Shown here: positions 22,043-22,891 of the stretch, in pieces
Position numbering within the stretch: the stretch's first letter is position 1
Layout: each line of letters starts with the position of its first letter
From: Deltaproteobacteria bacterium
Lineage (GTDB): Bacteria; JAGRBM01; JAHCIT01
Direction of reading: 5' to 3'
Assembly: GCA_026129095.1 (NCBI GenBank)
Contig: JAHCIT010000002.1
Location: 186,001-250,000 of the forward strand
DNA length: 64,000 nt
Program-made: the position numbers and the translations under genes
Notes under the pieces: generated by a model
What the model was told of the DNA's origin: nothing
Database searches by the model: none
What the model saw: only the letters and a program-made list of their open reading frames with translations

Positions 22043-22058
22043 TTGACTGATGAGTCAA
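22043..22058. promoter_or_regulatory. TetR-type operator upstream of the acyl-CoA dehydrogenase gene
   Basis: TTGACTGATGAGTCAA: 6-bp perfect arms around a 4-bp centre. The same arms recur at 22876-22891 before the second acyl-CoA ligase. On the minus strand the TTGACT can also serve as a -35 element for the dehydrogenase, so a bound repressor would block it. Confidence 0.6.
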
Positions 22059-22083
22059 TCATGGAAGTGGGGACATAAAATGA

Positions 22084-22119
22084 AAGCAGCGCACGGGATT
22101 TCACCCCGAAACGCTGCTT
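22084..22119 (-). terminator. Rho-independent terminator of the lipoprotein gene
   Basis: Read on the minus strand, AAGCAGCG and CGCTGCTT form an 8-bp stem whose loop holds a second small GGG/CCC stem. It is followed by TTTCATTTTAT. It lies 29 bp past the stop of the lipoprotein gene at 22148. Confidence 0.6.
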
Positions 22120-22147
22120 CTGGAATTCGGATATCGTGCGTTTTGGG

Positions 22148-22639
22148 TCAGTTACCGGCACCAGCCTTTTTCAGCTTCACCGCCTTGCCGGAAATTTCCG
22201 AGCAATAACGCGAGAAGAAAACCGGGACCGAAAAACCATCCGATTTGCCTTTGGTCACGAGGATCACGTCTGCACCGGCGGTGCTGGACAACGCGGTGTA
22301 GGTTGCGGCATCCAGAGAGTCCTGCTCATCCACGCCGGCAAACATAGAGGACAACGGCCGGAACAACGGTCCGTAAAACGTCATAATATCAAAGCCGCCT
22401 GCTACTTCTCCGCTTGCCGAGATCACCGGCGACCCGGAGGCGGTGAATTTCGGTCCGGTACGGATAAAAAATATCTTGGAAGCACATTCACGAGCAGTGA
22501 TATCGCCAATCAAATCGAAGTCGTAGGTACCGGACATGCCTGGAGGCGGCGGAGTTACGTTAAGGCTTCTACTGTCCTTCGCGGCGCAACCGGCGATCAA
22601 CAGCACAAAAGCAGCAAAAAGGGGTTTCGAGGCATTCAT
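22148..22639 (-). CDS. Putative lipoprotein with possible phase-variable promoter
   Basis: 163 residues from the ATG at 22639 (AGAAAGGA lies about 12 nt upstream). The signal sequence MNASKPLFAAFVLLIAGC has lipobox IAGC. The mature protein contains TYTALSSTAGADVILVTKGK, a short pattern reminiscent of TRL-like lipoproteins, but no family can be assigned. Base composition is close to 50% GC, clearly below the neighbours, which suggests recent transfer. A tract of 12 G sits between a -35-like TTGACT and a -10-like TATTGT upstream. The terminator at 22084-22119 closes the unit. Confidence 0.7.
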   Translation of the reverse strand: MNASKPLFAAFVLLIAGCAAKDSRSLNVTPPPPGMSGTYDFDLIGDITARECASKIFFIRTGPKFTASGSPVISASGEVAGGFDIMTFYGPLFRPLSSMFAGVDEQDSLDAATYTALSSTAGADVILVTKGKSDGFSVPVFFSRYCSEISGKAVKLKKAGAGN

Positions 22640-22677
22640 GATGTCGTATGATCCTTTCTGAAACTGGAATGCCGCGC

Positions 22678-22708
22678 ACAATACCCCCCCCCCCCTATTA
22701 AAAGTCAA
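22678..22708 (-). promoter_or_regulatory. Putative promoter with 12-G spacer tract
   Basis: On the minus strand TTGACT (22708-22703) and TATTGT (22683-22678) are separated by 19 nt, of which 12 are an uninterrupted G run (22684-22695). The predicted start of transcription would be some 30 nt before the lipoprotein ATG at 22639. Loss of two G would give the ideal 17-nt spacer. This is the layout of phase-variable promoters such as porA of Neisseria meningitidis. The -35 overlaps the end of a 41-codon small ORF. Confidence 0.5.
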
Positions 22709-22823
22709 TATTTTTTTCGATTTGCCTGATGACCACACCCATCACCAGACCGTCTGAATCCCAAGATTTCGGATTTTCCAGGAGCGTTTTCGGCGTTACG
22801 AGCACCTGCTTTTCAATCGTCAT
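22698..22823 (-). CDS. Possible 41-residue small protein upstream of the lipoprotein gene
   Basis: ATG at 22823 to TAA at 22698, encoding MTIEKQVLVTPKTLL through to a charged, hydrophobic end (GLVMGVVIRQIEKNIDF). AGGGAG lies 8 nt before the ATG. It shares the low GC of the lipoprotein gene and ends 2 bp before the G tract. No homolog is recognised. It could be a real small protein co-expressed with the lipoprotein, a degraded gene end, or chance; the good ribosome-binding site favours the first. Confidence 0.4.
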   Translation of the reverse strand: MTIEKQVLVTPKTLLENPKSWDSDGLVMGVVIRQIEKNIDF

Positions 22824-22875: not shown

Positions 22876-22891
22876 TTGACTCGCAAGTCAA
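22876..22891. promoter_or_regulatory. TetR-type operator upstream of the FATP-type acyl-CoA ligase gene
   Basis: TTGACTCGCAAGTCAA, with the same 6-bp arms as the site at 22043-22058. It is itself nested within a wider inverted repeat CCCTAAC (22866-22872) / GTTAGGG (22899-22905). TTGACT at 22876 can act as the -35 of the ligase gene that starts at 22950. Confidence 0.6.

What the first reader, a model, noticed from the sequence alone, without database searches (positions are those of the whole stretch)
22678..22823. Poly-G12 tract in the spacer of a lipoprotein promoter: possible phase variation
On the minus strand a -35-like TTGACT and a -10-like TATTGT are 19 nt apart and the spacer holds 12 uninterrupted G. 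The predicted transcript start is about 30 nt before a surface-lipoprotein gene. Slipped-strand changes of 1-2 G would move the spacer through the optimum, the mechanism of porA-type phase variation. The lipoprotein and its upstream DNA are AT-richer than the rest. A caution: the -35 overlaps the end of a 41-codon ORF, and tract length could be an assembly artefact.
Basis: partly seen in the sequence, partly recalled or inferred. Interest (0 to 1): 0.75.

Follow-up and report, generated by a model that had tools for sequence, protein, structure and literature searches.

The report
Poly-G tract in lipoprotein promoter
A run of twelve Gs sits exactly between the two halves of the likely promoter of a small lipoprotein gene, in a poorly known bacterial phylum, so copying slips could turn the gene up or down as in Neisseria porA, but no data on tract-length variation could be had.

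Summary
Minus-strand TTGACT (22708-22703) and TATTGT (22683-22678) are 19 nt apart and enclose G12 (22695-22684), 38 nt upstream of a lipoprotein ATG. It is the only G/C run longer than 8 in the window. It is the best promoter-like site upstream of the gene, at a score reached only about 10 times in the window. Deleting one or two G would bring the spacer to 18 or 17. The gene is real: it has a paralog in the same genome, distant homologs elsewhere, a Shine-Dalgarno sequence and a terminator-like hairpin. The paralog has a similar promoter (TTGACG-N18-TATAGT) without a G run. Away from contig ends the genome has only two other G/C runs of 12 or more: one inside a GDSL acylhydrolase reading frame, one about 190 nt upstream of a type III restriction-modification operon. 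Three are seen where 0.1-0.3 are expected, and all lie at classes of gene that commonly phase-vary. Best explanation: a porA/tp0126-type promoter-spacer contingency locus, about 0.6. Not tested: length variation (no reads, no close relative held), the transcription start, and surface exposure. Contig ends of this assembly carry poly-G junk, so the exact length needs checking. Known mechanism, unusual host.

The parts
22684..22695 (-). uninterrupted G12 tract (C12 on +) inside the promoter spacer
   Evidence: only G/C run above 8 in the window
22703..22708 (-). -35-like hexamer TTGACT (overlaps the last codons of the 41-codon ORF)
22678..22683 (-). -10-like hexamer TATTGT, 19 nt from the -35 at the present tract length
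   Evidence: score 8.05 bits at G12, 9.37 at G11, 10.47 at G10
22652..22659 (-). Shine-Dalgarno-like AGAAAGGA, 12 nt before the ATG
   Evidence: read directly from the sequence
22148..22639 (-). 163-aa lipoprotein gene (lipobox LIAGC), no Pfam family; 33-35% identical paralog at G000:C2:474077-474502
22083..22120 (-). intrinsic-terminator-like hairpin followed by UUUCAUUUUAU, downstream of the lipoprotein gene (-24.2 kcal/mol, z -3.1)
   Evidence: the consensus scanner did not list it
22698..22823 (-). 41-codon ORF with a GGGAG ribosome-site-like sequence, no relative found; its stop (TAA) precedes the tract, so tract changes cannot fuse it to the lipoprotein
22876..22891 (.). perfect TTGACTNNNNAGTCAA palindrome between the divergent fadD-like gene and the 41-codon ORF
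22043..22058 (.). second perfect TTGACTNNNNAGTCAA palindrome, between the lipoprotein gene and the acyl-CoA dehydrogenase gene

Best explanation
The G12 tract is the spacer of a sigma-70-type promoter that drives a small monocistronic lipoprotein gene. Slipped-strand mispairing during replication should add or remove Gs. At G12 the -35/-10 spacing is 19 nt (weak); at G11 or G10 it is 18 or 17 nt (strong); at 13 or more it is 20 or more nt (very weak). A population would then be a mix of high, low and near-off expressers: a transcriptional contingency locus that works like meningococcal porA or fetA, or Treponema pallidum tp0126. Shown here: the sequence, the geometry, the tract's excess over chance, and the gene's reality. 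Inferred: that RNA polymerase uses these hexamers, that the tract mutates, and that expression changes.
For: Exact anatomy. Tract beyond chance in the window and genome. Best promoter-like site upstream of the gene, with a graded length response in a PWM model: 15 nt 7.4, 16 nt 9.2, 17 nt 10.5, 18 nt 9.4, 19 nt 8.1, 20 nt 6.6 bits. Such scores are rare in this GC-rich window. The paralogous lipoprotein has a promoter with the same hexamer types, TTGACG-N18-TATAGT, without a G run, which supports the hexamer assignment. The gene has homologs and a terminator-like hairpin. The other two long internal G tracts in the genome are in a GDSL acylhydrolase ORF and upstream of a type III mod/res operon, gene types that phase-vary in other bacteria (type III mod: PMC6265453, PMC4525171, abstracts). 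Precedent: tp0126 poly-G lies between -35 and -10 with an optimum at 17 nt (PMC7864442); fetA poly-C lies between -10 and -35, and a gonococcal lipoprotein is also listed as transcriptionally phase-variable (PMC5320596).
Against: No length variation observed or testable here. MutS and a MutL-type ATPase domain are encoded, so mismatch repair is probably intact and slippage not elevated. The -10 is only 4/6. Contig ends of this assembly carry poly-G junk, so this sequencing has a G-run problem and 12 may not be exact. The tract at the type III operon has no obvious promoter across it, so the three tracts do not share one mechanism. The only held relative in the phylum lacks the gene and has no G12 tract.
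Confidence: 0.6

Rival explanations
1. The tract sits in a real promoter but is a fixed, rarely changing spacer; it merely sets a weak constitutive promoter, and any length change is slow and not selected as a switch.
For: Mismatch-repair genes are present. No variation data. A 19-nt spacer still gives a usable score. Runs of 9-10 G occur in this genome about as often as a geometric decline predicts, including inside ffh-like and acetyl-CoA-synthetase-like genes that are presumably not switched.
Against: Runs of 12-13 are in excess over that decline, and homopolymeric G tracts of this length are hypermutable in the bacteria where they have been followed (own knowledge; T. pallidum example).
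Confidence: 0.2
2. The gene is transcribed from further upstream (near the 22876-22891 palindrome, together with the 41-codon ORF), so the G12 tract lies in an intercistronic RNA leader and acts, if at all, on RNA structure or translation rather than on promoter spacing.
For: The 41-codon ORF has a plausible ribosome site; a weaker promoter-like pair TTGTTA-N18-CATACT lies about 205 nt upstream; the palindrome belongs to a probable fatty-acid operator family.
Against: The upstream pair scores lower (6.3 against 8.1-10.5 bits). The 41-codon ORF has no relative in either genome of the phylum and no family match. Its stop precedes the tract.
Confidence: 0.12
3. Sequencing or assembly artefact: the true tract is much shorter or longer, or the run is a two-colour-chemistry poly-G error.
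For: Five contigs of the same assembly begin or end in poly-G or G/C junk (C2, C8, C10, C16, C17).
Against: This run is internal, about 208 kb into a 561-kb contig, with coherent unique DNA on both sides. A 12-base overlap is too short to join contigs falsely at usual assembler k-mers (inference). The artefactual runs are at contig ends.
Confidence: 0.05
4. Translational switching: the frame is open from a GTG at 22738 through the G tract into the lipoprotein, so tract length would control an N-terminally extended protein.
For: With 12 G the 196-codon frame reads through.
Against: The extension would bury the signal peptide. The ATG at 22639 has its own Shine-Dalgarno sequence and starts a normal lipoprotein signal, and the paralog aligns from that Met. 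PMC7864442 reports that the annotated tp0126 ORF had likewise been drawn too long and was redefined after the TSS was placed relative to its poly-G.
Confidence: 0.03

Closest known systems
Treponema pallidum tp0126 (OmpW homolog) promoter poly-G (PMC7864442)
   Same: Poly-G between -35 and -10 upstream of an envelope protein; optimum at 17 nt; the annotated frame also ran upstream through the tract region
   Different: Outer-membrane beta-barrel rather than lipoprotein; length variation and reporter effects shown there, not here
Neisseria meningitidis porA promoter poly-G (van der Ende 1995, cited in PMC5320596 and PMC7864442)
   Same: Poly-G spacer of a sigma-70-type promoter of an envelope protein
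   Different: Porin of a host-adapted pathogen, variation proven; no sequence homology to this locus
Neisseria fetA/frpB poly-C spacer (PMC5320596)
   Same: Homopolymeric C tract between -10 and -35; 10-14 C in gonococci
   Different: TonB-dependent receptor; opposite strand sense of the tract; variation proven
Paralogous lipoprotein of the same genome (G000:C2:474077-474502)
   Same: 33-35% identical lipoprotein; promoter TTGACG-N18-TATAGT, same hexamer types
   Different: Spacer without a G run and a longer leader, so presumably not switchable

Membership tests
porA/tp0126-type promoter-spacer phase variation | long homopolymeric tract lying wholly between -35 and -10 hexamers | tested here: met
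   TTGACT-(TTTAATA G12)-TATTGT
porA/tp0126-type promoter-spacer phase variation | spacing within 1-2 nt of the 17-nt optimum so that slippage crosses it | tested here: met
   19 nt at G12; PWM maximum at G10
porA/tp0126-type promoter-spacer phase variation | tract longer than chance for the genome | tested here: met
porA/tp0126-type promoter-spacer phase variation | promoter drives an envelope or surface protein gene | tested here: inconclusive
   lipobox LIAGC and lipoprotein signal present; surface exposure not testable; structure model of very low confidence
porA/tp0126-type promoter-spacer phase variation | tract length varies between cells or strains | not testable with these tools
   no reads; no strain or genus relative held; only one other genome of the phylum, without the gene
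porA/tp0126-type promoter-spacer phase variation | transcription start and expression depend on tract length | not testable with these tools
   needs 5'-end mapping and reporters
Known lipoprotein families (Pfam, NCBIfam) | match over the curated cut-off | tested here: not met
   Pfam none over cut-off; NCBIfam only a weak hit to LEPBI_I0682 family, 17.8 bits against cut-off 220

The most novel reading that the evidence does not exclude
A sparsely sampled bacterial phylum keeps a small genome-wide set of poly-G contingency loci (a lipoprotein promoter, an envelope-type GDSL acylhydrolase and a type III restriction-modification operon, which would make a phasevarion). This would extend the strategy, best known from host-adapted pathogens, into a lineage where it is unstudied.
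Probability: 0.35. Interest if true: 0.65.

Novelty: new member of a known kind. Interest (0 to 1): 0.45.

Why it matters
Promoter-spacer phase variation by poly-G tracts is documented mainly in host-adapted pathogens such as Neisseria and Treponema. A clean case in a deep lineage with only two held genomes, accompanied by tracts at an acylhydrolase and a type III restriction-modification locus, would mean that cell-to-cell switching of the envelope and of DNA methylation is used more widely, perhaps against phages or grazers. It can be tested directly in existing reads.

Tried and rejected
(1) Close relatives: lipoprotein search of 192 relatives and of the phylum (2 genomes) found only the genome itself. 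A two-sequence profile over 386 genomes found four distant homologs in other phyla; the fetched surroundings hold no G run of 8 or more except one G9 in L103. The neighbouring fadD-like protein in genome contigs found nothing nearer than 42% identity, in Lokiarchaeota, and the best match in the other genome of the phylum is 30%, so no orthologous intergenic region could be compared. (2) AlphaFold model of the lipoprotein: mean pLDDT 36, not usable, so no fold search was run. (3) The 41-codon ORF as a phase-variable fusion partner: rejected, because its stop codon precedes the tract. (4) A promoter spanning the tract at the type III operon: none convincing. (5) Contig-end poly-G runs were not counted as loci because they look like sequencing junk, although at C16 and C2 they abut lipoprotein- or surface-protein-like reading frames.

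Full report
OBSERVATION. The tract is exactly as described: C12 at 22684-22695 on the + strand, G12 on the minus strand. Upstream is TTGACT (22708-22703), downstream TATTGT (22683-22678), spacing 19 nt; the ATG of the lipoprotein (22639) is 38 nt beyond the -10. It is the only G/C run above 8 nt in 64 kb, and the local run-length ladder predicts about 0.001 such runs. Over the genome (3.67 Mb, 23 contigs) there are 119 G/C runs of at least 7. After setting aside about 11 runs at contig ends, 10 of at least 9 and three of at least 12 remain, where 0.12-0.28 of at least 12 are expected by geometric decline. The count of about 11 contig-end runs is approximate, because one search lists only the first 100 places.

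PROMOTER. A position-weight score (sigma-70 frequencies from general knowledge) gives the tract-spanning pair 8.05 bits at G12, 9.37 at G11, 10.47 at G10, 9.22 at G9, 6.63 at G13. No pair outside the tract in the 300 nt upstream exceeds 6.3. Scores of 8.05 or more occur about 10 times on both strands of the window. Simulated flanks around a fixed G tract reach the G10 score in 0.3% and a looser 9-of-12 match in 3.8% of trials. The paralog's promoter TTGACG-N18-TATAGT (11.6 bits) uses the same hexamer types and has no G run. The consensus scanner did not list the site because it only allows spacers of 16-18.

GENE. The ORF codes for a 163-aa protein with a lipoprotein signal and LIAGC lipobox, no Pfam family, and only a very weak NCBIfam match. 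A paralog (33-35%) lies at C2:474077-474502, and a profile of the two finds distant homologs in four other genomes, so it is a genuine gene. AGAAAGGA precedes the ATG. A hairpin followed by a U-rich tail ends the unit, before the acyl-CoA dehydrogenase gene. The gene and its upstream region are AT-richer than the surroundings.

COMPANION TRACTS. The other two internal runs of at least 12 are G13 inside the open frame of a membrane-anchored-looking GDSL acylhydrolase at C3:13029 and G12 at C4:183933, about 190 nt upstream of a DNA methylase (PF01555) and a ResIII/endonuclease gene, a type III restriction-modification operon in an AT-richer stretch. Envelope genes and type III mod genes are typical phase-variable classes (abstracts; PMC5320596). 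Three loci are few, and this class argument is qualitative. The type III tract has no convincing promoter across it.

CAUTIONS. Contigs C2, C8, C10, C16 and C17 begin or end in poly-G or G/C junk, so the sequencing had a G-run problem; the window's tract is internal, with coherent flanks. Mismatch-repair genes (a MutS N-terminal domain and a MutL-type ATPase family) are present. No strain, genus or family relative is held, so length variation is untested.

MECHANISM AND KNOWN KIND. It most likely works like porA, fetA or tp0126: slippage moves the spacer through the 17-nt optimum (PMC7864442; PMC5320596). It is filed as a probable new member of that kind of switch, by architecture only; the defining functional features (length variation, effect on transcription) were not testable. 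Confidence 0.6.

Noticed in passing
22043-22058 and 22876-22891 (also L067-L071): Perfect palindrome TTGACTNNNNAGTCAA occurs 7 times in the genome (15 sites with at most 1 mismatch against 4 for the reversed control), mostly next to fatty-acid genes by eye (acyl-CoA dehydrogenases, fadD-like and other acyl-CoA synthetases, thiolase, desaturase, enoyl-CoA hydratase): a probable operator of a fatty-acid regulon. Two copies flank the lipoprotein gene.
   Followed up: partly
L098:3934-3945 (G000:C4:183933-183944): G12 run about 190 nt upstream of a type III restriction-modification operon (mod PF01555, res ResIII), at the edge of an AT-richer stretch: candidate phasevarion.
   Followed up: partly
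L036:2530-2542 (G000:C3:13029-13041): G13 run in the middle of an open GDSL acylhydrolase frame (in frame at 13): candidate translational switch.
   Followed up: partly
L035, L042, L044, L045, L046 (contig ends): Poly-G or G/C-only junk at contig ends, looking like two-colour sequencing artefact; at C16 and C2 it abuts lipoprotein- or surface-protein-like frames, so some may be real tracts that broke the assembly.
   Followed up: partly
L034:2125-2133 (G000:C1:223124-223132): G9 run 4 nt upstream of the ATG of another small predicted lipoprotein, overlapping its ribosome-binding region; the length is within chance for this genome.
   Followed up: no
L098:3400-3600: Short tandem GCAGGCCGG repeats encoding GQA repeats in the gene just upstream of the type III operon tract.
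   Followed up: no
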